Of a DNA stretch of 64,000 bases, positions 301-11,574 are shown in pieces. The DNA is taken from positions 1 through 64,000 of the forward strand of contig NZ_LQBP01000007.1 in the NCBI RefSeq assembly GCF_001507545.1, given 5' to 3'. The number at the start of each line of letters is the position of its first letter. Positions within the stretch are counted from its first letter, which is position 1. The notes beneath the pieces are model-generated. The model made no database searches. It had not been told where the DNA came from and saw only the letters and a list, made by a program, of their open reading frames with translations. This DNA comes from Ruegeria profundi (GTDB lineage Bacteria > Pseudomonadota > Alphaproteobacteria > Rhodobacterales > Rhodobacteraceae). The translations under genes were made by a program, and so were the position numbers.

Positions 301-684
301 ATGGCCGATATTTTCGACGAAGACCTTTTTCTGAAAGGGTTAGAGCAGCGCAAAGGCACCTTGGGTGCGGAATATGTGGAAAAGAACCTGGCAGCTGCCG
401 ATGACTTCACCCGCCCATTTCAAGAAGCGATGACAGCCTGGTGCTGGGGGTTCGGCTGGGGCGATGACGTGATTGATGCCAAGACCCGGTCGATGATGAA
501 CCTGGCGATGATTGGTGCCTTGGGTAAAATGCATGAATGGGAAATCCACTGCAAAGGCGCGATCAACAACGGTGTGTCAAAAGAGGAAATCAGGGCCATC
601 ATTCACGTTGTCGGCATCTATTGCGGTGTTCCGCAGGCGCTGGAGTGTTTTCGCGTTGCCCGTAAAGTGTTGGATGCCAGCTAA
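301..684 (+). CDS. carboxymuconolactone decarboxylase family protein (PcaC-like)
   Basis: The 127-aa product has the size and layout of 4-carboxymuconolactone decarboxylase (protocatechuate branch of the beta-ketoadipate pathway). The family core is the C-terminal run NNGVSKEEIRAIIHVVGIYC followed by GVPQALECFR, very close to PcaC. It lacks the CxxC peroxidatic pair of AhpD-type members, so a thiol peroxidase role is unlikely. The start has GGAGA 8 nt upstream. No other protocatechuate gene lies nearby. It converges on the Rieske gene, which is transcribed from the other strand, so decarboxylase activity is inferred only from family. Cytoplasmic. Confidence 0.85.
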   Translation: MADIFDEDLFLKGLEQRKGTLGAEYVEKNLAAADDFTRPFQEAMTAWCWGFGWGDDVIDAKTRSMMNLAMIGALGKMHEWEIHCKGAINNGVSKEEIRAIIHVVGIYCGVPQALECFRVARKVLDAS

Positions 685-868: not shown

Positions 869-1957
869 TTAATCTACGGCTTCGCGCATCCACTGTTGCA
901 GCCGGGCGATTGAATGTTCTGACATCACCCCGCATCCCGGATCCAGCACCAGCGGACCGGGGCGATAGCCGCGGGACTTGAGGCCACGGTGGACGCTTTC
1001 AACAAGCCTGATGTCTTCCTCAACCGTGGTTTCCCGATCCTGAACGGCCAGTTGCCGGATCACTGCGCTTTCCGAACCACCCTCGGTGTACCACCCCCGG
1101 AACACGGTACAGTGGTCCGCGTCCTTGGCGCGCCAGTGATAAGTGTTCAACACATTACCCGGGTAGCATTGGAACGAAAACATCGGCCACAGAAACCATG
1201 ACTGATAGTCTCCGGCATGGGGCACCGACAGGTCGATTGGATAGGTCATCTTGTCGAGGCTCTGACATTCGGTGGTGTGACGCAGGACATAACCGCCGTT
1301 CGCGTCGGGCTGGATGTCATAGGTCTCGGGTTTAACCACACCCTCAGCAAAGGTCGGGTGATTGGTCGGGCAGTGGTAGCATTCCGAGTAATTCTCGACA
1401 CTGACTTTCCAGTTGCAGTTTTCGGGTATTTCGACCCATTCCAATGGTTCGAGATCGTCAATCTGAGGCACAAAAGCGCGGATTTCTTCGCGGACGCCGG
1501 GGTACCACTCATCCATCGGGGCGGCGGCGTCATCAAGGTTGACGAAGATGAAACCGTTGAACACCTCGGTTCGGACCGCGGTCAGGCAGATCGCGCTGCG
1601 GTCAAAGCCGGGTACAGATTTGATATTGGGTCCAGCGCGCAGTTGGCCGGACAGCTCATACGTCCAAGCATGATAAGGGCAGACGACGACGCGGGTATTC
1701 CCCGCACCCGTTACCATTTCATGCGCACGGTGCTGGCAGACATTGTAAAAAGTGCGGATTTCGCCATCGCGTCCGCGGATACAGAACAGGTTCTGCCCGG
1801 CGATCTCGAACGCAAAATAGTCACCCGTTTCCCGCACCTGCGCCACATGGCCTGCAAACTGCCACGTTCGCGCCAGAAGCCCCTGCATCTCGCGCTCGAA
1901 AATTGCAGGATCGGTATAGTACCGGGCGTCCAGGGAATGGGTCAGCGGTGCGTTCAT
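869..1957 (-). CDS. Rieske non-haem iron oxygenase, GbcA/CntA/HpbB-like (quaternary amine N-demethylase candidate)
   Basis: This 362-aa oxygenase alpha subunit has a Rieske [2Fe-2S] motif C74-x-H76 and C93-xx-H96. The mononuclear iron site is NYSECYHCPTNH, with ligands H195 and H200 and probably D315. The residue between the two centres is E192, the bridging glutamate typical of betaine and carnitine oxygenases rather than the aspartate of aromatic-ring dioxygenases. This points to oxidative N-demethylation of a trimethylated or dimethylated amino acid. No ferredoxin reductase partner is encoded in the window. The ATG overlaps the stop of the upstream rpiR-like gene by 4 bp, so the two are co-transcribed. 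The substrate is inferred from family and context. Confidence 0.88.
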   Translation of the reverse strand: MNAPLTHSLDARYYTDPAIFEREMQGLLARTWQFAGHVAQVRETGDYFAFEIAGQNLFCIRGRDGEIRTFYNVCQHRAHEMVTGAGNTRVVVCPYHAWTYELSGQLRAGPNIKSVPGFDRSAICLTAVRTEVFNGFIFVNLDDAAAPMDEWYPGVREEIRAFVPQIDDLEPLEWVEIPENCNWKVSVENYSECYHCPTNHPTFAEGVVKPETYDIQPDANGGYVLRHTTECQSLDKMTYPIDLSVPHAGDYQSWFLWPMFSFQCYPGNVLNTYHWRAKDADHCTVFRGWYTEGGSESAVIRQLAVQDRETTVEEDIRLVESVHRGLKSRGYRPGPLVLDPGCGVMSEHSIARLQQWMREAVD

Positions 1958-2841
1958 TCGGGCTCCTCCGCGTAGAGGCCTAGTTGGTATCTGCGTTGGT
2001 GAAATCGTGCCACGCGCTCGACGATCTCATCGCTGGAAAGCGCAATCACGAAAGACAGCAGCGTTTCCAGCAAAGCGATGGTTGAAACGGATGACGGGAA
2101 GAATTGCGGTGTATCGGCGGCCACAACAAAACCGTGCTGCGCGTTCAGTATGACCGGGCTGGCCGGGCTGTCGGAAATGCCGATGACTGTTAAACCTTGT
2201 TGCCGCGCCAGTTTGATCGCCTCAATTACCTCGGTGCGGTAGGGATGGCATGTAATGGCAATCAGCACGTCCTGTTCATCAGCCCAGGCCAGATCGTCCA
2301 CCGGTGTGGAGCCGGGTCTGGGGATGGCATGGAATTGCTTCATCCCCGTTGAGGCAAGATACGTGAAATTACGCGCGTTCGAATTGTTGACTCCGACACC
2401 CAGCGTGAACACCTGTCGTGAAGTCCAGATCGTTTCAGCTGCTTTCTCAAGGCGCTGGGCATCAATCCCTGCAAAGGTTTCTTCGATATTGCGGATCGCG
2501 GCACCGACCATGTCGGCATAAAGCCCGCCCAGTTCGCCGGACTTGCCGATATCCTGCAGCCAACGGGCGCGGTCCGGAAAAGACACCGTACCTTTGCGAA
2601 TCGCGTCGCGGAAGGGTGCGCGGAAATCCTCGTAGCCCTCGAACCCCACCTGTCGGGCCATGCGCACGAAGGTGTTCGGTTTGACGTTGGCGGCTTCGGC
2701 GATCTCTCGCACCGTTGAAACCCCAACATCCGTTGGGTTTTCCAGCACGTAACGCGCGGCTTTCTGCGCTTCGGGCGTCAGGGCTTCCCATTCGCGGGAC
2801 AATCGGTCGAGAACCGTATATGATACATTTGTGTCATTCAT
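1954..2841 (-). CDS. RpiR-family transcriptional regulator (HTH-SIS)
   Basis: This 295-aa protein has an N-terminal helix-turn-helix (about residues 15-90, with EIAEAANVKPNTFVRMARQ as the recognition region) and a C-terminal SIS domain (about 125-265) that normally binds a phosphosugar or other small ligand. It is divergent from the flavoprotein operon starting at 2910 and co-transcribed with the Rieske gene. It is therefore the obvious local regulator of both. A copy of the proposed operator half-site lies inside its own first codons. Repressor or activator cannot be told from sequence. Confidence 0.9.
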   Translation of the reverse strand: MNDTNVSYTVLDRLSREWEALTPEAQKAARYVLENPTDVGVSTVREIAEAANVKPNTFVRMARQVGFEGYEDFRAPFRDAIRKGTVSFPDRARWLQDIGKSGELGGLYADMVGAAIRNIEETFAGIDAQRLEKAAETIWTSRQVFTLGVGVNNSNARNFTYLASTGMKQFHAIPRPGSTPVDDLAWADEQDVLIAITCHPYRTEVIEAIKLARQQGLTVIGISDSPASPVILNAQHGFVVAADTPQFFPSSVSTIALLETLLSFVIALSSDEIVERVARFHQRRYQLGLYAEEPE

Positions 2842-2862
2842 GATTGACGATGGTACAAATGT
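2825..2862. promoter_or_regulatory. paired 8-bp inverted-repeat sites in the rpiR / flavoprotein divergent region
   Basis: ACATTTGT at 2825-2832 and ACAAATGT at 2855-2862 are exact reverse complements, 30 bp apart start to start. Each half is itself an imperfect palindrome (ACA-WW-TGT). One lies over the first codons of the RpiR gene, the other in the 68-bp gap between the divergent starts. The arrangement fits a dimeric or tetrameric regulator bound on one face of the helix. Binding by the adjacent RpiR protein is inference. Confidence 0.5.
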
Positions 2863-2909
2863 GGAATTAGCGTGTCGAGCAGAAACGCGACTCGGGAAGA
2901 GGAAAAATC

Positions 2910-5363
2910 ATGTCCGAGAAACATTTGCCGTCACATGCCCGCGTCGTCATCGTGGGCGGAGGTGTCATGGGGGTCGGTCTGGCTTATCACCTGGCGCATG
3001 AAGGGTGGGGCGGTGATACCGTTCTTCTGGAAAAGGCTGAGCTGACCAGTGGCAGTACGTGGCACGCGGCGGGCCAGATCACGCATTCGACGTCAAGTTT
3101 CGGGCTGGGCAAATGCGTCGACTACAATATCGGGCTGTATTCGGGCGCGTTAGAGGCTGAAACGGGTCAACCGGTAACGTGGCATGGCTGCGGTTCCTTC
3201 CGTCTGGCCTATACCGAGGATGAGATGGACTGGCTGCGCCACACCTTGTCGGTGGGCCGGTCGCTGGGCTTCAATATCGAACTTGTCGGCCCTGAAAAGG
3301 TGGCCGAACTGCACCCGTTCTACAATCTCGAGGGCGTTCTGGGCGCACTTTACACGCCCGATGACGGCCATGTTGACCCGACCAACGTGACCATGGCGAT
3401 GGCAGCCGGGGCACGTCAGAAGGGCGTGCGCATCGTCCGCAACTGCCGCGCAACCAACATTACTCAGGCCGACAGTGGCGAATGGGTGGTTGAGACCGAG
3501 ATGGGCACCATCACCTGTGAGCACGTGGTGAACGCCGGTGGTACCTATGCAAGGCAAATGGGCGAATGGTCGGGGCTGCAACTGCCGATGACCTCGATGA
3601 CGCACCATTACTTCGTGACCGAGCCTGTGCCAGAGTTTCAGAACCTGGATAAGGAGCTGCCGGTGATCCGCGATGACCGCAAGGTCTCGGGCTATATCCG
3701 GATGGAGCAGCAGCGCGGGCTGATCGGGATCTATGAAAAAGAGAACCCGAACTCGGTCTGGCATGATCACTGCCCTTGGGAATACGAGAACTGGCTGTTC
3801 GACGCGGATTATGACCGGGTGATGCCGTGGCTTGAAGAAAGCCTGAACCGCATGCCGATCTTTGCCGAGTTGGGTATTCAACGCGATGTGCATGGGGCGA
3901 TTTCACATCCGCCGGATGGCAACCCGCTTATCGGGCCAGCACCGGGCGTGCGGAATTACTGGTGCTGCTGCGGGACTCAAATCGGGATCGGTTGGGGTCC
4001 GGGCCTGACCCGCGAATTGGCGCGCTGGATGGTGCATGGGGCCGCCGATATCTCGATGCGCGAATTCGACCCGCGCCGGTTCGGCAGTTATGCCACCAAG
4101 GAGTGGCAGGTGATCAAGGCCGAGGAAGATTACTGCCTGCGCCACGAAATCCCCTTCCCGCATTTCAACCGGCTTGCGGGGCGTCCAATCAAGCCGTCGC
4201 CACTGTATGAACTGCTGAAATCCAAGGGTGCGGTGCACGAAGAAGTCTACGGCTTTGAACGTCCCCGCTGGTTCGCGCGGGACGGGGTGGAGCAGTGCGA
4301 TCATTATTCTTTCCGCCGGACGCCCGCCGACGATATGGTCGCGGCCGAGGTCAAGGCGGTGCGTGAGCGCGTCGGGATCATGGATGTCACCGCTTTCACC
4401 AAGGTCGAGGTTTCGGGGCCGGACGCTTACACTTTGCTGGACCGCCTGACTGCCAACCGGATGCCGCAAAAGGTCGGATCGATCACATTGACCCACATGC
4501 TGAACCGGCGGGGCCGGATCGAGTTGGAGACCACCATCGTTCGCATGGCCGAGGATCGGTTCTATCTGGTCTGCGCAGCGTTCTTCGAACAGCGCCTGCT
4601 GGATCACCTTGCGCAACAGCGCGCAGATGAGGATGTACAGATTACGGCTCTGTCCTCTGATTGGTCTGCCCTGTCGCTGAACGGCCCCCGGTCGCGCGAT
4701 GTGTTGGCGCGCTGCACCGATGCTGACCTGACCAATGCCGGGTTCCGCTGGCTGTCCGCACAGGAAATTACTGTTGCAGGGCATCAGGTCTGGGCCTTCC
4801 GCATGTCCTATGCCGGCGAATTGGGGTGGGAACTGCACATGCCCAACGTCGCCTGCCTCGACGTCTACAATGCGCTCTGGGCGGCAGGTGAGCCGCATGG
4901 CATCGCCGACTACGGCAGCTTTGCCATGAACGTGATGCGGATGGAGAAAGGGTTTAAAGGCGCTGGGGAATTAACCAATGAGGTCACGCTGGCCGAGGCC
5001 GACGTGCTGCGCTTTGCCCGCACCGACAAGGAGTATCTGGGTAAAGAGAAAACCCTGAACACCGACCTGCCCTGGGTCTGCGCGTATCTCGAGATCGAGC
5101 CGGATGGCGAGATCGACGGGCATGGCGGCGAAGCCGTGATGTTAGATGGCCGTGTCGTAGGCTCGACCGCTTCGGTTGCCTATGGTCATACGGTCGGCAA
5201 AATCCTGGCCTTTGCCTATATCAAGCCCGAGGCCGCAACACCCGGAACCGCGTTGCAGGTGGTGATCCACGACTCACCCCGCGCGGCCCGTGTTCTGGGC
5301 GAACCCGCTTACGATCCGCAAAGCCTGCTGCCGCGCACCGACGCCGCATTCGAGACCGCCTGA
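2910..5363 (+). CDS. FAD-dependent dimethylglycine/sarcosine dehydrogenase-like protein (DAO + GcvT)
   Basis: This 817-aa two-domain enzyme has an N-terminal DAO flavin domain (about 10-370, with dinucleotide motif GGGVMG at 16-21). A linker and a GcvT-like aminomethyltransferase half (about 430-810) follow. The motif GSTWHAAG places H52 where dimethylglycine and sarcosine dehydrogenases bind FAD covalently. The family oxidatively removes N-methyl groups from tertiary or secondary amines and passes the C1 unit to tetrahydrofolate. It is the first gene of the plus-strand operon and overlaps the next ORF by 1 bp (TGATG). The exact amine substrate is unknown. A step after Rieske demethylation of a betaine is the natural reading. 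Confidence 0.9.
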   Translation: MSEKHLPSHARVVIVGGGVMGVGLAYHLAHEGWGGDTVLLEKAELTSGSTWHAAGQITHSTSSFGLGKCVDYNIGLYSGALEAETGQPVTWHGCGSFRLAYTEDEMDWLRHTLSVGRSLGFNIELVGPEKVAELHPFYNLEGVLGALYTPDDGHVDPTNVTMAMAAGARQKGVRIVRNCRATNITQADSGEWVVETEMGTITCEHVVNAGGTYARQMGEWSGLQLPMTSMTHHYFVTEPVPEFQNLDKELPVIRDDRKVSGYIRMEQQRGLIGIYEKENPNSVWHDHCPWEYENWLFDADYDRVMPWLEESLNRMPIFAELGIQRDVHGAISHPPDGNPLIGPAPGVRNYWCCCGTQIGIGWGPGLTRELARWMVHGAADISMREFDPRRFGSYATKEWQVIKAEEDYCLRHEIPFPHFNRLAGRPIKPSPLYELLKSKGAVHEEVYGFERPRWFARDGVEQCDHYSFRRTPADDMVAAEVKAVRERVGIMDVTAFTKVEVSGPDAYTLLDRLTANRMPQKVGSITLTHMLNRRGRIELETTIVRMAEDRFYLVCAAFFEQRLLDHLAQQRADEDVQITALSSDWSALSLNGPRSRDVLARCTDADLTNAGFRWLSAQEITVAGHQVWAFRMSYAGELGWELHMPNVACLDVYNALWAAGEPHGIADYGSFAMNVMRMEKGFKGAGELTNEVTLAEADVLRFARTDKEYLGKEKTLNTDLPWVCAYLEIEPDGEIDGHGGEAVMLDGRVVGSTASVAYGHTVGKILAFAYIKPEAATPGTALQVVIHDSPRAARVLGEPAYDPQSLLPRTDAAFETA

Positions 5364-6445
5364 TGGCCCTGCCAAATACAATGAGGGCCATGGTCACCAT
5401 GGGCCACGGCGGGTTAGAGCAAATGGTGCTGCACACCGACTGGCCGCGCCCTGAACCCGCGCCCGGCGAGGTGCTGATCAAGGTCGCCGCCTGTGGTCTG
5501 AACAATACGGACGTGAACACGCGCTCGGGCTGGTATTCCAAGACCGTCACAGACGCGACCACTGGCGACGCGTTTGAGAAGGTGGGTGAGGACGACCCGA
5601 CTTGGGGCGGCAATCCGATCACCTTTCCGCGCATTCAGGGGGCTGATATCTGCGGAGAAATCGTAGCTGTCGGTGCAGGTGTCGACAGCGCCCACATCGG
5701 TCAACGCGTCATCACCGATGGCTGGCTGCGCGATCCGAATGATCCGGAAAACATGGACAAGACAGGCTACTATGGCTCGGAACGCGATGGTGGTTTTGCC
5801 GAATATGCGACAACGCTTGCGGTAAACGCTCTTCCAGTCAAATCGAACCTGTCAGATGCCGAACTGGCGACGTTTTCCTGCTCCTATTCAACTGCCGAGG
5901 GCATGCTGACCCGCGCCAATGTAACGGACAGGGATACGGTGCTGGTGCCCGGCGCCTCGGGCGGTGTTGGCGGTGCGCTGGTCCAGCTTGCCAAACGGCG
6001 CGGTGCGCGGGTGATTGCGATGGCGTCCGAGGTAAAGCATCCTGATGTTGCCAAGCTGGGGCCAGACCGCATCCTACCCCGTGCGCCAGAGAACCTGCGC
6101 GCGGCCCTTGGTGAAGAAAAGGTAACCGTAGTTGCGGATGTGGTTGGCGGGCCATACTGGCCGAATCTGATCGACATTCTGGAACGCGGCGGGCGCTATA
6201 CCTGTTCCGGCGCAATTGCTGGTCCGATGGTCGAGTTCGACCTGCGCACATTCTACCTGCGCGACCTGACCTTTACCGGCTCGACCGTGATCGACCCGCA
6301 GGTAATGCGGAACATCGTGAAATACATCGAGACCGATCAGATCAAACCCGCCCTTGCCGCGACCTATCCGTTAGAGGACCTGCGCGACGCTCAGGCTGCT
6401 TTCATTGCAAAACAGCATACCGGCAACATAGTGGTGATCCCATGA
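5363..6445 (+). CDS. medium-chain dehydrogenase/reductase, quinone-oxidoreductase type
   Basis: This 360-aa MDR protein has a GroES-like N-terminal half and an NAD(P)-binding Rossmann half with PGASGGVGGALVQLAK (about 195-210). The catalytic zinc ligands of alcohol dehydrogenases are missing: the usual Cys position reads NNTDV and the GHE region reads GADI. It is therefore probably a zinc-independent reductase acting on an activated double bond or a small carbonyl. The ATG shares one base with the stop of the upstream flavoprotein gene. The enolase-superfamily gene follows 13 bp later, so it belongs to the same operon. Its substrate is unknown. Confidence 0.85.
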   Translation: MALPNTMRAMVTMGHGGLEQMVLHTDWPRPEPAPGEVLIKVAACGLNNTDVNTRSGWYSKTVTDATTGDAFEKVGEDDPTWGGNPITFPRIQGADICGEIVAVGAGVDSAHIGQRVITDGWLRDPNDPENMDKTGYYGSERDGGFAEYATTLAVNALPVKSNLSDAELATFSCSYSTAEGMLTRANVTDRDTVLVPGASGGVGGALVQLAKRRGARVIAMASEVKHPDVAKLGPDRILPRAPENLRAALGEEKVTVVADVVGGPYWPNLIDILERGGRYTCSGAIAGPMVEFDLRTFYLRDLTFTGSTVIDPQVMRNIVKYIETDQIKPALAATYPLEDLRDAQAAFIAKQHTGNIVVIP

Positions 6446-6458
6446 CATTGGATGCCGC

Positions 6459-7565
6459 ATGAAAATTACCCGCATCCGAATCTACCAGACCGGGCTGCCC
6501 TATGTGGGTGGTGCCTATGTCTGGGGTGCGGGCAATGCGATCGAAACGGCCATCGCCTCGGTCGTGGTGATAGACACCGATGCCGGGTTGCAGGGATGTG
6601 GTGAGTTCACACCTTGTGGCGAGAACTACATGGCCGCGCATTCCCAAGGTGTGGCATCGCTGGCGCGTCTTGTGGCTCCGAAACTGCTGGGGGAGGATCC
6701 TCGGCACGTAGGTCGGATCGAGCAAATGATGGACCATCTGGTGCAAGGTCACGGCTATGCAAAGGCGCCGTTTGATGCGGCCTGTTGGGATATTTTGGGC
6801 CAAGCTTGCGATCAGCCGGTCTGGATGCTGCTGGGCGGCAAGCTGACCGATGGCGCACCGATGTACCGGGTCGCGCCGCAGAAAGCGGTGGATGAGACCG
6901 TGGCCGAGATGAACGCCTATCGCGATCAGGGTTACAGGCAGTTTCAAATCAAGGTCGGGGGCGACTGGGCCAGCGATATTGACAGGATACGCGCCACCGT
7001 GCCGTTGCTTGAACCGGGCGAAAAGGCGATGGCCGATGCCAATCAGGGATGGCGCGTCGACAATGCGATCAGGGTCGCCCGTGCCACGCGCGATCTGGAC
7101 TTTATTCTGGAACAGCCCTGCCGCACCTATGAGGAATGCCAGCAAGTGCGCCGCGTGGCTGAACAGCCGATGAAGCTGGATGAATGTATGACCGACATCC
7201 AGATGGCGCAGCGGATCGTTGCGGATCGCGGGGCCGAGATTTGCTGTCTGAAAATTTCGAACCTCGGCGGGCTCAGTAAGGCGCGGCGGGTGCGGGACTA
7301 TCTGATCGACAACCGAATTCCCGTGGTCAGCGAGGATACATGGGGTGGTGAGATCGCGACCTCGGTCGTTGCGCATTTTGCGGCCTCCACCCCGCCCGAA
7401 TATCTGCAGAACACAACCGATCTGATGAACTACAATACGCGATCAACCGGAATTGGCGGGGCAACGTCGCAGGATGGCAAGCTTTATGCCCCGGATGCGC
7501 CCGGACTTGGTGTGAAGCCTGATTTCGAAAGCCTGGGTGCGCCGGTGGCGGAATATGTGTCATGA
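6459..7565 (+). CDS. enolase-superfamily MR/MLE protein 1 (hydroxyproline-betaine-epimerase-like)
   Basis: This 368-aa protein has an N-terminal capping domain and a (beta/alpha)7-beta barrel. The catalytic lysines are K165 (FQIKVGG) and K265 (CLKIS). The metal ligands are D193 (MADAN), E218 (ILEQP) and D241 (KLDE), so a two-base 1,1-proton transfer is possible. Shared signatures with HpbD (4-hydroxyproline betaine 2-epimerase) include GHGYAKAPFD, Y57 in the capping loop and W295 in DTWGG. In HpbD the corresponding aromatic residues contact the quaternary ammonium group, to my recollection. It is the first of three tandem paralogues and overlaps the next by 4 bp. Racemase, epimerase or dehydratase activity remains open. 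Confidence 0.87.
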   Translation: MKITRIRIYQTGLPYVGGAYVWGAGNAIETAIASVVVIDTDAGLQGCGEFTPCGENYMAAHSQGVASLARLVAPKLLGEDPRHVGRIEQMMDHLVQGHGYAKAPFDAACWDILGQACDQPVWMLLGGKLTDGAPMYRVAPQKAVDETVAEMNAYRDQGYRQFQIKVGGDWASDIDRIRATVPLLEPGEKAMADANQGWRVDNAIRVARATRDLDFILEQPCRTYEECQQVRRVAEQPMKLDECMTDIQMAQRIVADRGAEICCLKISNLGGLSKARRVRDYLIDNRIPVVSEDTWGGEIATSVVAHFAASTPPEYLQNTTDLMNYNTRSTGIGGATSQDGKLYAPDAPGLGVKPDFESLGAPVAEYVS

Positions 7566-8671
7566 AGATAAAATCGATCACCGTATACCAAGCCGACCTG
7601 CCTTTGGAGCATCCCTATTGGTTGTCCGGCGGACGGCTGAAGTTCGAAACACTCGACGCAACGATTGTAAAGATCGAAACTGATGCAGGGCTGGTCGGCT
7701 GGGGTGAGGGTACCCCTTGGGGGCATACGTATGTGCCCGCGCATGGCCCGGGTATCCGTGCGGGTATTCAGACGATGGCCCCGTTCATTCTGGGCCTTGA
7801 TCCGCGCAAGCTGCTGGTGGTTGAGCGCGCGATGGATACCGCCTTGCCCGGCCACCTCTATGCCAAAAGTCCAATCGATATGGCCTGCTGGGATGTTGCA
7901 GGGCAGGCAGCGGGGTTGCCAATTGCTGATCTGATGGGAGGAGGGTCGCGCACGCCGCGCCCGATTGCGTCGTCGGTGGGGGCGAAAACCATCGAAGAAA
8001 CCCGCAAGGTGATTGAGCGGTATCGCAGTCGGGGGTATGTCGCACACTCGGTAAAGATCGGCGGCAATGTTGAACGCGATATTGCCCGCGTTCGAGATGT
8101 CGAGAGCTTCCGCAAACCGGGCGAGATCGTCCTCTATGATGTCAACCGGGGTTGGACCCGACAACAGGCCCTGCGGGTGATGAGCACCTGTGAGGACCTG
8201 AACGTCATGTTCGAACAGCCGTGTGAAACGCTGGACGATATCGCGGCGATATCGGGCCGTCATGCCTCGCCCGTTTCGGTGGATGAAAGCCTTGTCACCT
8301 TGCAAGATGCCGCCCGTATTGCGCGCGATGGGCTGGCTGAGGTGTTTGGGATCAAGCTGAACCGCGTTGGCGGGCTGACCAAGGCCGCGCGGATGCGGGA
8401 TATCGCGCTGGCGCATGGCATCGACATGTTCGTGATGGCCACCGGCGGCTCGGTCCTGGCCGATACCGAGGCGCTGCACCTGGCCGCGACCATTCCCGAC
8501 GAAAACTGCCACGCCGTCTGGGCCTGTCAGGACATGATCACAGTGGACATTGCCGGTGGACGCGGTCCGCGCAATATCGACGGTCACTTGTACCTGCCAG
8601 AGGTTCCCGGACTTGGCGTGTATCCCGACGAAGACGCGTTGGGTGCGGCTGTCGCGGAATATAGGGTTTGA
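7562..8671 (+). CDS. enolase-superfamily MR/MLE protein 2
   Basis: This 369-aa paralogue of the preceding gene is collinear with it almost residue for residue. It keeps both catalytic lysines (K165 in HSVKIGG, K265 in GIKLN) and the metal ligands D193, E218 and D241. It differs where protein 1 has W295: here the segment reads ATGGS, with glycine at 295. If that tryptophan cages a quaternary amine, protein 2 should act on a substrate without one (for example after demethylation) or catalyse a different step such as dehydration. The ATG overlaps the upstream stop by 4 bp. The downstream gap is AT-rich and holds an unrelated membrane-protein gene. Confidence 0.87.
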   Translation: MKIKSITVYQADLPLEHPYWLSGGRLKFETLDATIVKIETDAGLVGWGEGTPWGHTYVPAHGPGIRAGIQTMAPFILGLDPRKLLVVERAMDTALPGHLYAKSPIDMACWDVAGQAAGLPIADLMGGGSRTPRPIASSVGAKTIEETRKVIERYRSRGYVAHSVKIGGNVERDIARVRDVESFRKPGEIVLYDVNRGWTRQQALRVMSTCEDLNVMFEQPCETLDDIAAISGRHASPVSVDESLVTLQDAARIARDGLAEVFGIKLNRVGGLTKAARMRDIALAHGIDMFVMATGGSVLADTEALHLAATIPDENCHAVWACQDMITVDIAGGRGPRNIDGHLYLPEVPGLGVYPDEDALGAAVAEYRV

Positions 8672-8767
8672 AGCGAGAGACTGATATGCAATTTTATTCT
8701 AAGAGATTGAAATTATGGCAATTTCCTTTTATACTTCTGATATCAAAAGATAAAAATTGGACGAATA

Positions 8768-9157
8768 ATGGATGTTACACATCTGATTGTTGCGATCATC
8801 GCGCTGAGCATTGGGGTGTTGATCGGTCGGAACGGAATACGCAAACGCGAAAACGAAAAAGCAATCGTCGGCAATCCAGAGACACTACCGCGCGGCAACG
8901 ATGGGGGGCAGCGAAACGACAAATCGGAAATGTCTTTTGGAATGCGCGTGTTTTCGGCGGTTTTCCTGTTCGGTTGGCTTACCGCGTGGACAGCGGGTAT
9001 CGCTATGGCCGTCTCAAACTTCAGCTCGACCGAGGGTGGGGCATCTCTTTTCATGGTGGGGTGGTTGATCGCAGCGATCGCCGGATGGGTTTGGGCTGTC
9101 TATACACTTTGGAAACTGGTTACCGGGCGGCCAGTGAAACTGCGGGGTTGGAACTAA
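8768..9157 (+). CDS. small membrane protein of unknown function, inserted in the MR/MLE gene row
   Basis: I do not recognise this 129-aa protein. Three hydrophobic stretches are visible: residues about 4-20 (LIVAIIALSIGVLIG), 58-82 and 93-115. A charged segment lies between the first and second (GIRKRENEK and following). The leader at 8672-8767 is strikingly AT-rich compared with the surrounding operon and could carry its own promoter. The gene sits between the second and third enolase-superfamily genes, where nothing links it to catabolism, so it may be a later insertion. Confidence 0.6.
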   Translation: MDVTHLIVAIIALSIGVLIGRNGIRKRENEKAIVGNPETLPRGNDGGQRNDKSEMSFGMRVFSAVFLFGWLTAWTAGIAMAVSNFSSTEGGASLFMVGWLIAAIAGWVWAVYTLWKLVTGRPVKLRGWN

Positions 9158-9191
9158 GTAATTTACCGCTCCATTTCATGGGGGCGGAGCA

Positions 9192-10295
9192 ATGAAGGTC
9201 AACAAGATAACGCTTTGGTCCGTCGATCTGACCAGCCATGAAACCTATCACATGGCCGAGGGTAAGACCTGCGCGACCGTGACCTCTCATGTCCTGTGCC
9301 TTGAGACGGATACGGGTTTGACGGGCTGGGGCGAGGTTTGCCCAATCCCCCATTACCTGCCTGCATATGCCGGTGGAGTACCGGCTGCTGTTGCGGAAAT
9401 GGGGCCGGAAATCCTTGGAATGTCCCCGTTTGGTGTGGATGCGCCGATGCGCAAGCTGGACGGATTTCTTCCGGGTCACCAATATGCAAAATCCATCGTC
9501 GATATCGCCCTGTGGGACCTGTTCGGGCAGGCTACGGGCCAGCCGGTTTATGCTCTGCTGGGTGGACGGACGCGGAAGGATATGCCGCTTTACCACTCGA
9601 TCACCTGCATTGCGCCGGATGACATGGCCCGGATCGCTAAGGCAGCTTACCAGTCCGGCATTCGCCAGTTTCAGGTCAAGCTGGGTGTCGAAGGCGACTG
9701 GCAGGCCGATGCCGAACGTCTGATCAAGGTGCGTGAGGCCGTGGGGCAGGGACCGCTGGTTTATGGCGATTGGAATTGCGGAGCGTCGCGGCTGCAAGCT
9801 ACGCGCACGGGACGGGCGGTTGCCCACCTGGACATTATGCTGGAGCAGCCCTGCAAAACGCTTGAAGACTGTGCTGCTGTTCGGCAGGCAACCGGATTGC
9901 CGATGAAGATTGACGAGAACGCATATGATCTGGACTCGCTTTTGCGCGCGCATGAGTTGGGTTGTCTGGACGCGGTGGCGCTGAAATTATCAAAGTTCGG
10001 CGGGCTTTCAGCCATGCGGCGCGCGCGTGACCTGACCGTCCATCTGGGGGCTGAGATCTGTGCCGAATGCACTTGGGGGTCGGACATCGTGACGGCGGCG
10101 TCATTGCACTTTGCGGCGTCGACTCCACACGGATCTTTGTTGAACACCTGTGATCTCTCGTCTTATGTTGCGCCGCGCATCTGCCCGGATGCACCAAACC
10201 GTGTGAATGGCAGGATTGCCCCGCCGGACGGGCCGGGGTTAGGTGTTGCGCCAGACCCGGATATCCTAGGTTCCCCTGTATCGGAGATCGTGTGA
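9192..10295 (+). CDS. enolase-superfamily MR/MLE protein 3 (hydroxyproline-betaine-epimerase-like)
   Basis: This is the third 367-aa paralogue. Its catalytic lysines are K163 (FQVKLG) and K265 (ALKLS). Its metal ligands are D193 (YGDWN), E218 (MLEQP) and D241 (KIDE). It carries GHQYAKSIVD, W295 in CTWGS and an aromatic capping loop (PHYLPAY). The lysine numbering matches HpbD, and of the three it looks closest to that enzyme to my eye. GGGCGGAGC precedes the ATG by a few bases. The aminotransferase gene starts 1 bp after its stop. Activity on an amino-acid betaine is inferred from the motif set and neighbours. Confidence 0.87.
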   Translation: MKVNKITLWSVDLTSHETYHMAEGKTCATVTSHVLCLETDTGLTGWGEVCPIPHYLPAYAGGVPAAVAEMGPEILGMSPFGVDAPMRKLDGFLPGHQYAKSIVDIALWDLFGQATGQPVYALLGGRTRKDMPLYHSITCIAPDDMARIAKAAYQSGIRQFQVKLGVEGDWQADAERLIKVREAVGQGPLVYGDWNCGASRLQATRTGRAVAHLDIMLEQPCKTLEDCAAVRQATGLPMKIDENAYDLDSLLRAHELGCLDAVALKLSKFGGLSAMRRARDLTVHLGAEICAECTWGSDIVTAASLHFAASTPHGSLLNTCDLSSYVAPRICPDAPNRVNGRIAPPDGPGLGVAPDPDILGSPVSEIV

Positions 10296-10296
10296 A

Positions 10297-11574
10297 ATGC
10301 TGAAAATCAATACTCAAGCCGAATGGATCGACCGAGCGAACGCCGTCTTGCCCGCCGGGGGATTTGGCAATTTCGACCCCGGTATCATCATTGCACGTGG
10401 CGAAGGCAGCCATGTTTGGGACGAAGATGGAAATGAATTCATCGACTATCTGATTGGCTCGGGTCCGATGCTGCTGGGTCATGGCCACCCCGAAGTGATT
10501 GAGGCCGTGCTGGAACAACTGCCCAAAGGCATGACATTCTTTGCCAACAACGCCAAAGGCATTGAGCTGGCCGAGGCGATCATTGATGCGGTTCCATGCT
10601 GTGAACAAATCCGCTTTGTCGCGTCGGGTGGCGAAGCGGACATGTACGCAATCCGCCTTGCCCGCGCCTTTACTGGCCGCGACAAGATACTTAAATTCGA
10701 AGGCGGTTATCACGGAATGAGTGCCGAGGCGCAGATGAGCCTTGCCCCAAGCCGCCAGGTCAACTTTCCGCAGGCCGTACCCGATAGCGCCGGTATCCCC
10801 GAAGGTGTGGCCGAGCAAATGCTGATCGCGCCCTTCAACGATCTGGAAGCCGTGTCGGCCCTGCTGGATGAACATGACGATGTCGCCGCGATCATGGTCG
10901 AGCCGTTGCAGCGGATCATTCCACCTTTACCCGGGTATCTTCAGGGGCTGCGGGACCTGTGCGACAAACACGATGTTCTGCTGATCTTTGATGAGATCGT
11001 CACCGGTTTCCGTCTGGCCTATGGCGGTGCGCAGGAAAAATACGGCGTCACGCCCGATATCTGCACCCTTGGAAAGATTACCGGCGGTGGTTTCCCCTTG
11101 GCCGCGCTGGGCGCCAGCGCCGATATCATGAAACATTTCGACAAAGCGCAAGTGGGTGAAGAAGGCTGGCTGATGCAGTTGGGGACCTTGTCCGGCAATC
11201 CCGTGGCATCGGTCGCGGGTCTCAAGACCATGGAAGTATTGCGGCGCGACGGTGTTTACGACCAATTGCGCGCGACGGGTGCGGCATTGCAGCAGATGCA
11301 AGTGGATGCGCTGACAAAGGCTGGCATTCCGCATCAGGTTTGCGGCGATGAGACACTGTTCGATATCTATTTTACCGATGCTGCCTGTCGTGACTACCGA
11401 AGTGCGAAACATGACGATCCACACCGCAACACACTCTACAACGATACGTTGCGCGCACACGGTATCTTCAAATCCCCCGGCAAGCTTTATCCGTCCTTTG
11501 CAGTCACCGAGGCTGATTTGGAACAAACCCGTGCAGCCGTTGAAAAGGCAGTAGACGCAATCAGCGCAGCGTGA
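10297..11574 (+). CDS. class III PLP aminotransferase (glutamate-1-semialdehyde aminomutase-like)
   Basis: This 425-aa fold-type I PLP enzyme has SGGEADMYAIRLARA (about 110-124) binding the phosphate, D232 in FDEIVTGFR contacting the pyridine nitrogen, and Schiff-base K260 in LGKITGGGFP. The nearest branch is the HemL-like group that also holds many catabolic omega-aminotransferases. Its place at the end of the catabolic operon argues against tetrapyrrole synthesis, even though hemC lies just beyond, because hemC is convergent and separated by a hairpin. It probably transaminates an aldehyde or keto intermediate released by the upstream enzymes. Confidence 0.87.
   Translation: MLKINTQAEWIDRANAVLPAGGFGNFDPGIIIARGEGSHVWDEDGNEFIDYLIGSGPMLLGHGHPEVIEAVLEQLPKGMTFFANNAKGIELAEAIIDAVPCCEQIRFVASGGEADMYAIRLARAFTGRDKILKFEGGYHGMSAEAQMSLAPSRQVNFPQAVPDSAGIPEGVAEQMLIAPFNDLEAVSALLDEHDDVAAIMVEPLQRIIPPLPGYLQGLRDLCDKHDVLLIFDEIVTGFRLAYGGAQEKYGVTPDICTLGKITGGGFPLAALGASADIMKHFDKAQVGEEGWLMQLGTLSGNPVASVAGLKTMEVLRRDGVYDQLRATGAALQQMQVDALTKAGIPHQVCGDETLFDIYFTDAACRDYRSAKHDDPHRNTLYNDTLRAHGIFKSPGKLYPSFAVTEADLEQTRAAVEKAVDAISAA

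What the first reader, a model, noticed from the sequence alone, without database searches (positions are those of the whole stretch)
1954..11574. Candidate undescribed betaine catabolic system with three tandem HpbD-like enzymes
Three adjacent enolase-superfamily genes of hydroxyproline-betaine-epimerase type sit with a flavin demethylase (covalent-FAD His52), a Rieske oxygenase with a bridging glutamate, a zinc-less reductase and a class III aminotransferase, all around an RpiR regulator. The known 4-hydroxyproline betaine pathway uses one such epimerase with Rieske demethylases. Three paralogues imply two or more proton-transfer or dehydration steps, or a family of related substrates. No transporter or ferredoxin reductase is in the window. 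The substrate class is inferred from the motifs. The exact substrate is not deducible.
Basis: partly seen in the sequence, partly recalled or inferred. Interest (0 to 1): 0.78.

Follow-up and report, generated by a model that had tools for sequence, protein, structure and literature searches.

The report
Roseobacter betaine cluster missing its dddQ
This stretch of a marine bacterium's genome is a copy of a widespread but biochemically unassigned gene cluster, probably for eating a nitrogen-containing betaine, in which most close relatives carry dddQ, a gene known for making the climate gas dimethyl sulfide; here dddQ has been cleanly deleted.

Summary
In detail: every named gene is there. But the locus is not unknown: it is the neighbourhood of dddQ, the cupin DMSP lyase of roseobacters. 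PMC3338564 already notes that dddQ of Ruegeria pomeroyi and Roseovarius nubinhibens is linked to an MDR gene. Of 27 named clusters (26 Ruegeria titles, one KLH11) 25 hold dddQ; in the window an in-frame deletion left a 6-codon remnant (6442-6462).

Comparison of 104 clusters (100 distinct) shows a core of Rieske oxygenase, RpiR, DMGDH-like FAD-GcvT protein and GSA-type aminotransferase. The enolases are add-on modules: ENO2 is gained and lost with the MDR reductase, ENO1 partly with dddQ, ENO1 and ENO2 independently. So three paralogues do not mean three fixed steps.

Only ENO2 carries the tryptophan of HpbD (WxxQ); ENO1 and ENO3 resemble cis-3-hydroxyproline dehydratase. The Rieske protein has the Tyr/Glu pair of the carnitine/choline clade, not the Asn of the glycine-betaine/proline-betaine clade, and the core includes an aminotransferase. 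This favours an acyclic, non-alpha betaine over hydroxyproline betaine. But the paper used assigns N-demethylation to the Asn clade, so the Rieske step is open. The substrate is unproven.

The parts
301..684 (+). CMD: carboxymuconolactone-decarboxylase-family protein, often beside the cluster (25 of 40)
   Evidence: Pfam CMD 69.7 bits; TIGR02425 PcaC 116 bits, under its cut-off 155.7; counts
869..1957 (-). Rieske oxygenase, group V residues Tyr190/Glu192
   Evidence: Pfam; nearest PDB is CntA, 209.8 bits against 126.1 for 3VCA; motif; group Va/Vb from PMC7948474 passages
1954..2841 (-). RpiR-type regulator, overlaps the Rieske gene by 4 bases
   Evidence: Pfam HTH_6 + SIS
2842..2909 (.). 68-bp divergent promoter region, conserved across genera; TGTCG-N10-CGACT at 2873-2892 is an operator candidate
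   Evidence: this repeat in 44 of 92 unique intergenic regions (200 shuffles: mean 0.025, max 1); pattern chosen after looking
2910..5363 (+). FAD-GcvT protein, dimethylglycine-dehydrogenase-like, His52
   Evidence: Pfam DAO + FAO_M + GCV_T + GCV_T_C; PDB 5L46/4PAB DMGDH 516 bits
5363..6445 (+). MDR reductase without GHE zinc motif (place of SPO1593/ISM_14095 near dddQ)
   Evidence: Pfam; no GHE; PMC3338564 passages
6442..6462 (+). dddQ deletion scar: remnant frame MTLDAA-stop joining the two ends of dddQ, where relatives hold dddQ
   Evidence: dddQ in 25 of 27 named clusters (26 Ruegeria titles + KLH11)
6459..7565 (+). ENO1, MLE-subgroup enolase, orthologue of PDB 2RDX; strand-8 Asp
   Evidence: 2RDX 678.7 bits; sites
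7562..8671 (+). ENO2, MLE-subgroup enolase, orthologue of PDB 3EEZ; WxxQ motif as in HpbD
   Evidence: 3EEZ 730.7 bits; sites
8768..9157 (+). 129-aa membrane-like frame (by eye) of unknown family, homologue in 2 of 27 Ruegeria/KLH11 clusters
   Evidence: no Pfam/NCBIfam hit; counts
9192..10295 (+). ENO3, MLE-subgroup enolase, the most constant of the three (36 of 40 clusters, a set mostly chosen through ENO3 and FAD-GcvT); strand-8 Asp
   Evidence: 4MGG 274.6 bits; counts
10297..11574 (+). AT3, class III aminotransferase of glutamate-1-semialdehyde-aminomutase type, Lys260
   Evidence: Pfam; GSAM subfamily 386.7 bits, cut-off 398; PDB 2CFB 326 bits

Best explanation
A conserved alphaproteobacterial, mainly roseobacter, catabolic cluster for an acyclic quaternary-ammonium carboxylate, the same cluster that carries dddQ in most Ruegeria. 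Inferred route: the Rieske oxygenase attacks the trimethylammonium group or the carbon next to it; the DMGDH-like FAD-GcvT protein removes N-methyl groups onto tetrahydrofolate; AT3 takes the amine off the demethylated product; an aldehyde dehydrogenase (beside the cluster in some relatives, not found in this window) oxidises the semialdehyde. RpiR controls two divergent operons. Enolase-superfamily and dddQ genes are add-on modules that use alpha-proton abstraction to funnel related compounds in: ENO2 + MDR at the betaine stage (elimination or epimerisation, then reduction), ENO3 and ENO1 at the demethylated amine stage, DddQ as a beta-eliminase. Shown: gene content, conservation, modularity, motifs, dddQ deletion. 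Inferred: every reaction and the substrate.
For: Core recurs: of 40 clusters RpiR 39, AT3 36, ENO3 36, ENO2 27, MDR 28, ENO1 15, DddQ 15 (one of the 40, L077, is a contig end wrongly counted whole). Of 19 loci outside the family, 5 have Rieske, RpiR, FAD-GcvT and an AT3 relative but no enolase (L195, L196, L197, L199, L201; AT3 67% in L195, 41-43% in the others). Rieske: Tyr + Glu in 45 of 46 motif-bearing copies, the residues of the carnitine/choline clade. FAD-GcvT nearest DMGDH. ENO2 and MDR change on the same branch 10 times, all in the same direction (0 of 2000 random draws reach 10); ENO1-DddQ 6 times (0.009); ENO1-ENO2 once. Strand 8: Trp in 30 of 30 ENO2 at 60% identity or more, Asp in 17 of 17 ENO1 and 45 of 45 ENO3. 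dddQ scar.
Against: No reaction was tested. PMC7948474 assigns oxidative N-demethylation to clade Vb (Asn), not to the Tyr clade Va, and places CntA's hydroxylation on the carbon next to the ammonium: this speaks against a Rieske demethylation step. Clade membership rests on one residue pair, not on a Rieske tree. Rieske's best NCBIfam hit is GbcA, an alpha-betaine enzyme (160.7 bits, partial, cut-off 670). No reductase of the one family tested lies beside the window copy, and no transporter was seen there. Among 38 non-Ruegeria named clusters ENO1-DddQ and DddQ-ENO2 are not associated (p 0.39 and 1.0). DddQ-MDR share 7 branches but only 4 in the same direction. The AT3 relatives at 41-43% outside the family may not be orthologues.
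Confidence: 0.45

Rival explanations
1. Carnitine-type route: the Rieske protein oxidises the carbon next to nitrogen as CntA does, releasing trimethylamine and a semialdehyde; the FAD-GcvT protein handles methylamine-derived or other N-methyl compounds.
For: Nearest solved structure is CntA; Tyr/Glu pair of clade Va, which PMC7948474 separates from the demethylating clade Vb; aldehyde dehydrogenase in 10 of 40 and 13 of 38 clusters.
Against: Similarity to CntA is modest (209.8 bits); release of trimethylamine would not explain the aminotransferase or the DMGDH-like protein; no FAD_binding_6 reductase in the window.
Confidence: 0.2
2. One reading: a (hydroxy)proline-betaine route in which HpbD-like epimerases and Rieske/flavin demethylases yield (hydroxy)prolines.
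For: All three enolases fall in the neighbourhood of HpbD and cis-3-hydroxyproline dehydratase; ENO2 has the HpbD WxxQ; PMC5144071 passages describe LhpJ, HpbD and proline betaine racemase as related activities.
Against: The Rieske protein lacks the Asn that PMC7948474 gives for glycine betaine and stachydrine enzymes. The core contains an aminotransferase, which a cyclic secondary amine does not need, and exists without enolases. The only unlabelled families recurring in 3 or more of the loci (n1-n4) are a DddQ relative, antisense frames, a dehydrogenase and a LysR regulator by eye; single neighbours were not annotated, so nearby proline genes are not excluded.
Confidence: 0.15
3. A DMSP accessory locus: the cluster serves DMSP/acrylate metabolism through dddQ, with MDR as acrylate-type reductase.
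For: dddQ is inside it in 25 of 27 Ruegeria/KLH11 clusters; dddQ mutants of R. pomeroyi make 97% less DMS and dddQ is induced by DMSP (PMC5395565 passages).
Against: The core has no evident use for DMSP; 25 of 40 clusters lack dddQ; the MDR gene of R. nubinhibens did not correct acrylate sensitivity in E. coli (PMC3338564 passages).
Confidence: 0.1

Closest known systems
dddQ cluster of Ruegeria pomeroyi DSS-3 (SPO1593, SPO1596) and Roseovarius nubinhibens ISM
   Same: dddQ beside an MDR gene, likely co-transcribed (PMC3338564 passages); ENO1 and ENO2 have close solved orthologues 2RDX and 3EEZ (source organisms recalled, not shown by a call)
   Different: dddQ is deleted in the window; the passages seen assign no function to the rest of the cluster. 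These two loci were not themselves fetched
4-hydroxyproline betaine 2-epimerase HpbD (PDB 4H2H/2PMQ; 4E8G group; identities recalled) and its pathway
   Same: MLE-subgroup fold, Lys/Lys dyad, WxxQ in ENO2
   Different: ENO1 and ENO3 have Asp at the Trp place; Rieske residue and aminotransferase differ; modular enolase copies
[quoted passage not shown] NF043002)
   Same: best NCBIfam model for all three; ENO1 and ENO3 share the strand-8 Asp
   Different: 404/318/329 bits against a cut-off of 500
CntA carnitine oxygenase (group Va Rieske)
   Same: Tyr and bridging Glu of the quaternary-amine enzymes
   Different: no FAD_binding_6 reductase gene in the window; different partners
Dimethylglycine dehydrogenase
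   Same: DAO-FAO_M-GcvT architecture, 516 bits, His in the FAD motif
   Different: substrate unknown; constant partner of Rieske, RpiR and AT3

Membership tests
HpbD (hydroxyproline betaine 2-epimerase) | Two catalytic lysines at the ends of strands 2 and 6 and D/E/D metal ligands | tested here: met
   All three window enolases keep the motifs at equivalent places; the roles of these residues are recalled
HpbD (hydroxyproline betaine 2-epimerase) | Strand-8 Trp (cation-pi role recalled) as in 4H2H, 2PMQ, 4E8G | tested here: inconclusive
   ENO2 yes (30 of 30 at 60% identity or more), ENO1 no (Asp in 17 of 17), ENO3 no (Asp in 45 of 45); met by one of three
HpbD (hydroxyproline betaine 2-epimerase) | Closest characterised relative is HpbD | tested here: not met
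   4MGG 325/275/275 bits for ENO1/2/3, against 4H2H 176/179/189 and 4E8G 160/232/199
[quoted passage not shown]
   404.2, 318.0, 328.9 bits
Group V Rieske oxygenase, clade Va (carnitine, choline) | Aromatic residue at CntA position 203 and Glu at 205 | tested here: met
   Tyr190 and Glu192; 45 of 46 motif-bearing copies, one His; 3 of 49 hits lack the motif. No Rieske tree was built
Group V Rieske oxygenase, clade Vb (glycine betaine, proline betaine demethylation) | Asn at CntA position 203 | tested here: not met
   Tyr in the window; of two other Rieske genes of the genome L059 has Asn, L058 Tyr
DMGDH-type demethylating dehydrogenase | DAO, FAO_M, GCV_T, GCV_T_C domains with the FAD-motif His | tested here: met
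   covalent flavin and activity not testable
Glutamate-1-semialdehyde 2,1-aminomutase | Curated cut-offs 398 (NF000818) and 527.3 (TIGR00713) | tested here: not met
   386.7 and 373.2 bits
PcaC 4-carboxymuconolactone decarboxylase | TIGR02425 cut-off 155.7 | tested here: not met
   116 bits
dddQ cluster | Same gene order as clusters holding dddQ | tested here: met
   scar
dddQ cluster | dddQ itself present | tested here: not met
   five DddQ proteins find nothing in the window better than E 0.09; the genome's one PF16867 protein (C13:60425) is about 30% alike

The most novel reading that the evidence does not exclude
DddQ evolved, and largely still serves, as a beta-eliminase of a nitrogen-betaine pathway: the cluster degrades a DMSP-like ammonium carboxylate (for example beta-alanine betaine or the hydroxymethyl-trimethyl-beta-alanine head of the algal betaine lipid DGTA), and DMS from DMSP is a second activity of one accessory module. 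This would explain its millimolar Km for DMSP and its company of betaine-type genes, also outside the family (L207).
Probability: 0.22. Interest if true: 0.85.

Novelty: new variant of a known kind. Interest (0 to 1): 0.56.

Why it matters
dddQ is described as one of the two most abundant bacterial DMSP-lyase genes in the marine metagenome, yet its Km for DMSP is about 22 mM (PMC5395565 passages). Its home is a conserved cluster whose core looks built for a nitrogen betaine. Naming that substrate would show what dddQ counts in metagenomes mean, and would add a route for marine dissolved organic nitrogen. The window strain, with the cluster but a natural in-frame dddQ deletion, is a ready comparison: it should still use the core substrate. 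Two structural-genomics enzymes listed without a specific function (2RDX, 3EEZ) would gain a pathway context.

Tried and rejected
Homarine pathway: a library search gave three papers, none on its genes by the listing; not pursued. Muconate or acid-sugar enzymes: those models score far below the hydroxyproline dehydratase model. DddP link: one related cluster (L199) has a DddP-family gene beside AT3, but DddP-like genes occur in 78 of 385 class genomes and in only this 1 of 21 genomes with a FAD-GcvT match does a listed place lie by the cluster; chance is not excluded. 'dddQ only with ENO2' (15 of 15) did not hold in the named set: L119, L124, L141 and L164 have dddQ without ENO2. Transporters: none recurs by my gene clustering; THAF8 has an ABC importer directly after AT3, L148 a TRAP-like set and L175 another ABC set (by eye). 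A first DddQ motif pattern was wrong (1 of 56), corrected to 55 of 56. A first gene caller picked antisense frames and was replaced; the neighbour tables still contain some. Literature on dddQ and this cluster: dddQ + mandelate racemase, 0 papers; dddQ + dimethylglycine dehydrogenase, 0; the primary papers (Zhao 2013, Kumar 2014, Todd 2011, Zhang 2015) are not held, so I cannot say what they show. Rows dropped: ENO2-like copies under 60% (L055, L087, WLCH at strand 8), one ENO1-like at 44% and the fourth enolase kind were left out of the 30/17/45 counts; FAD-GcvT places of G078, G099 and G236 were not fetched. The named set is the best 80 of 357 and overlaps the unnamed set (for example G043 and L120). 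No structure prediction was run. After the filing check I lowered the best explanation from 0.50 to 0.45 and raised the carnitine-type rival from 0.15 to 0.20, because PMC7948474 assigns demethylation to clade Vb.
Full report
What is there. One search lists the frames and the Pfam domains: CMD (301-684), Rieske (869-1957, minus), RpiR (1954-2841, minus), FAD-GcvT (2910-5363), MDR (5363-6445), ENO1 (6459-7565), ENO2 (7562-8671), a 129-aa frame without known family (8768-9157), ENO3 (9192-10295) and AT3 (10297-11574). Overlaps of 1 to 4 bases (Rieske/RpiR, FAD-GcvT/MDR, ENO1/ENO2) and a 1-base gap (ENO3/AT3) point to two divergent operons around a 68-bp region. The window is the first 64 kb of contig C7, so what lies before it is not visible. 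By its nearest named relatives (ENO3 81-93% identity in Ruegeria records) the organism is probably a Ruegeria.

Spread. ENO3 orthologues (63-100% identity) occur in 46 of 295 family genomes, window genome included; FAD-GcvT at 70% or more in 47 of 295, three of them partial; 21 of 385 class genomes match FAD-GcvT at E 1e-250 or better; 7 of 329 phylum genomes at 1e-230, all in the same class. The neighbours recur across genera, and the core lies on plasmids of Roseovarius, Ruegeria and Sulfitobacter (the Ruegeria one without an annotated RpiR and with another aminotransferase).

The hidden gene. In 10 of the first 20 neighbourhoods the gene calls showed an extra gene of about 195 aa, by tblastn in 13 of 20. 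It is a DMSP_lyase cupin, and the copy of the same genus matches DddQ structures 4LA2 and 5JSO at 295 bits. Of 40 clusters classed whole, 15 hold it (one of the 40, L077, is a contig end and should not count). Of 27 named clusters (26 Ruegeria titles plus KLH11) 25 do, all but L122 and L158; of 38 others 7. Of 56 such proteins in both sets 55 keep the Y-HxH-E-Y-H motif. In R. arenilitoris and kin the dddQ start overlaps the MDR stop and its stop overlaps the ENO1 start. In the window that junction reads as the first codons of dddQ followed directly by its last codons, a six-codon frame MTLDAA (6442-6462); TGGATG, which stands at both ends of dddQ in relatives such as L101, is at the joint. This is a plain in-frame deletion. 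The genome's only other PF16867 protein (C13:60425) is about 30% alike to DddQ; a DddP-like gene lies at C1:495909.

What is in print. PMC3338564 (passages) states that dddQ of R. pomeroyi (SPO1596 per PMC5395565) and of R. [quoted passage not shown] it also reports that DddQ makes DMS in vivo (97% less DMS in an R. pomeroyi mutant). In the held library I found no paper joining dddQ with the mandelate-racemase-like or DMGDH-like genes (0 papers; 30, 31, 39, 75 wider, listings only). The papers most likely to show the neighbourhood are not held, so this is no claim of priority.

The enolases. [quoted passage not shown] Structures: ENO1 is an orthologue of 2RDX, ENO2 of 3EEZ, ENO3 nearest to 4MGG. 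That 4MGG is the Labrenzia LhpJ and that 4H2H/2PMQ/4E8G are HpbD enzymes is recalled; PMC5144071 (passages) describes LhpJ as a muconate-subclass enzyme that epimerises and dehydrates cis-3-hydroxyproline. The lysine and metal-ligand motifs are kept. At strand 8 ENO2 has WxxQ as do 4E8G, 2PMQ and 4H2H, in 30 of 30 ENO2 copies at 60% identity or more; two ENO2-like copies under 60% (L055, L087) have W without the Q. ENO1 has Asp in 17 of 17 and ENO3 in 45 of 45, as in 4MGG. A tree of 56 of the 104 rows groups ENO1, ENO3 and 4MGG (95/82) and separates them from ENO2, 2QDD and 4E8G, with warnings of long branches. I infer that ENO2 handles a quaternary ammonium and ENO1/ENO3 an amine.

Modules, not steps. 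On a tree of 100 distinct FAD-GcvT proteins (104 clusters, both sets, some genomes in both), ENO2 changes 20 times and MDR 23 times by parsimony; 10 fall on the same branch, all in the same direction (random mean 2.3; 0 of 2000 draws reach 10). ENO1 and DddQ share 6, all in the same direction (0.009). DddQ and MDR share 7, only 4 in the same direction (0.0025); DddQ and ENO2 share 4, 2 in the same direction (0.11). ENO1 shares 1 with ENO2 and 1 with MDR. As ENO1 usually stands between MDR and ENO2, joint loss of neighbours alone would make ENO1 follow them, which it does not. Fisher tests, not corrected for kinship: ENO2-MDR p 2e-5, 1e-5 among 38 non-Ruegeria clusters, 3e-12 overall. ENO1-DddQ p 5e-4, 8e-5 overall, but 0.39 in the 38. 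DddQ-ENO2 p 5e-4, 2e-4 overall, but 1.0 in the 38. The last two are therefore weaker. Enolase copies range from 1 to 3 in the 39 whole clusters to six enolase-type genes in L047 and none in L089 and five loci outside the family.

The core points away from proline betaines. Of 19 long stretches fetched outside the family (20 kb or less each), L195, L196, L197, L199 and L201 have Rieske, RpiR, FAD-GcvT and an AT3 relative without any enolase hit; L193 and L194 have FAD-GcvT and AT3 without Rieske; seven have an enolase; L207 has a DddQ relative (44%) with MDR, Rieske, FAD-GcvT and CMD. AT3 is 63-73% identical in seven of these loci but 37-45% in seven others, where it may be another aminotransferase. 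The Rieske protein is nearest CntA among solved structures. PMC7948474 (passages) divides quaternary-amine Rieske enzymes into clade Va, Tyr or Phe at position 203 (carnitine, choline, benzalkonium), and Vb, Asn (oxidative demethylation of glycine betaine and proline betaine; Stc2 binds stachydrine to iron through the carboxylate). The window has Tyr, as do 45 of 46 motif-bearing copies (one has His; 3 of 49 hits lack the motif); of two other Rieske genes of the genome one has Asn and one Tyr. This cuts both ways: it speaks against an alpha-betaine, and it also speaks against simple N-demethylation by this enzyme. An aminotransferase is of use for a primary amine, which full demethylation of an acyclic trimethylammonium acid gives and a prolyl betaine does not. 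Together this favours a beta- or gamma-ammonium carboxylate. AT3 also matches beta-amino-acid transaminases (4AO9, 2YKU), below the GSA aminomutases.

Regulation. The 68-bp region is conserved across genera; TTGAC-ATGGTA is in 77 of 92 unique regions and TGTCG-N6-13-CGACT in 44 of 92 (200 mononucleotide shuffles for the latter: mean 0.025, maximum 1). Both patterns were chosen after looking, and the regions are related, so these are not independent cases. It is a candidate RpiR operator only.

Verdict. Real, conserved, partly known as the dddQ neighbourhood, biochemically unassigned as far as the papers seen go.

Noticed in passing
L199:3010-4272 (G441:C35): A DddP-family M24 protein (250 bits to 4RZY; next family 55 bits) sits next to AT3, with CMD and ALDH beyond it, in a related core cluster; single case, chance not excluded.
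   Followed up: partly
L207 (G514:C23:68001-88000): Outside the family a DddQ relative (44%) stands with MDR, Rieske, FAD-GcvT (55%) and CMD, without enolase or AT3 hit.
   Followed up: partly
loci L124-L179, upstream of Rieske: A gene weakly like arylmalonate decarboxylase/EutA and a sulfotransferase-like gene travel together (13 of 14 non-Ruegeria clusters with the first also have the second); function unknown.
   Followed up: partly
G000:C13:60425-60739 (L099): The genome's only PF16867 protein is a distant DddQ relative next to genes that look like a sulfopyruvate/phosphonopyruvate decarboxylase pair (by eye).
   Followed up: no
L051, L061, L074: These clusters have ENO1 but a class III aminotransferase only 28% like AT3 as the nearest match.
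   Followed up: no
L156 (Pseudohalocynthiibacter aestuariivivens): Cluster with Rieske 57%, RpiR 64%, MDR, ENO2, ENO3 and AT3 but no FAD-GcvT hit; perhaps replaced by another demethylase.
   Followed up: no
L047/L094 (G194:C96), L087, L063: A fourth enolase kind (37-41% to ENO2, LDTR/LDCR/LDPR at strand 8) occurs in these loci, in L063 beside Rieske, ALDH and MDR genes on a Leisingera methylohalidivorans plasmid.
   Followed up: partly
window 8768-9157: 129-aa membrane-like frame between ENO2 and ENO3; homologues in only 2 of 27 Ruegeria/KLH11 clusters (L103, L110).
   Followed up: partly
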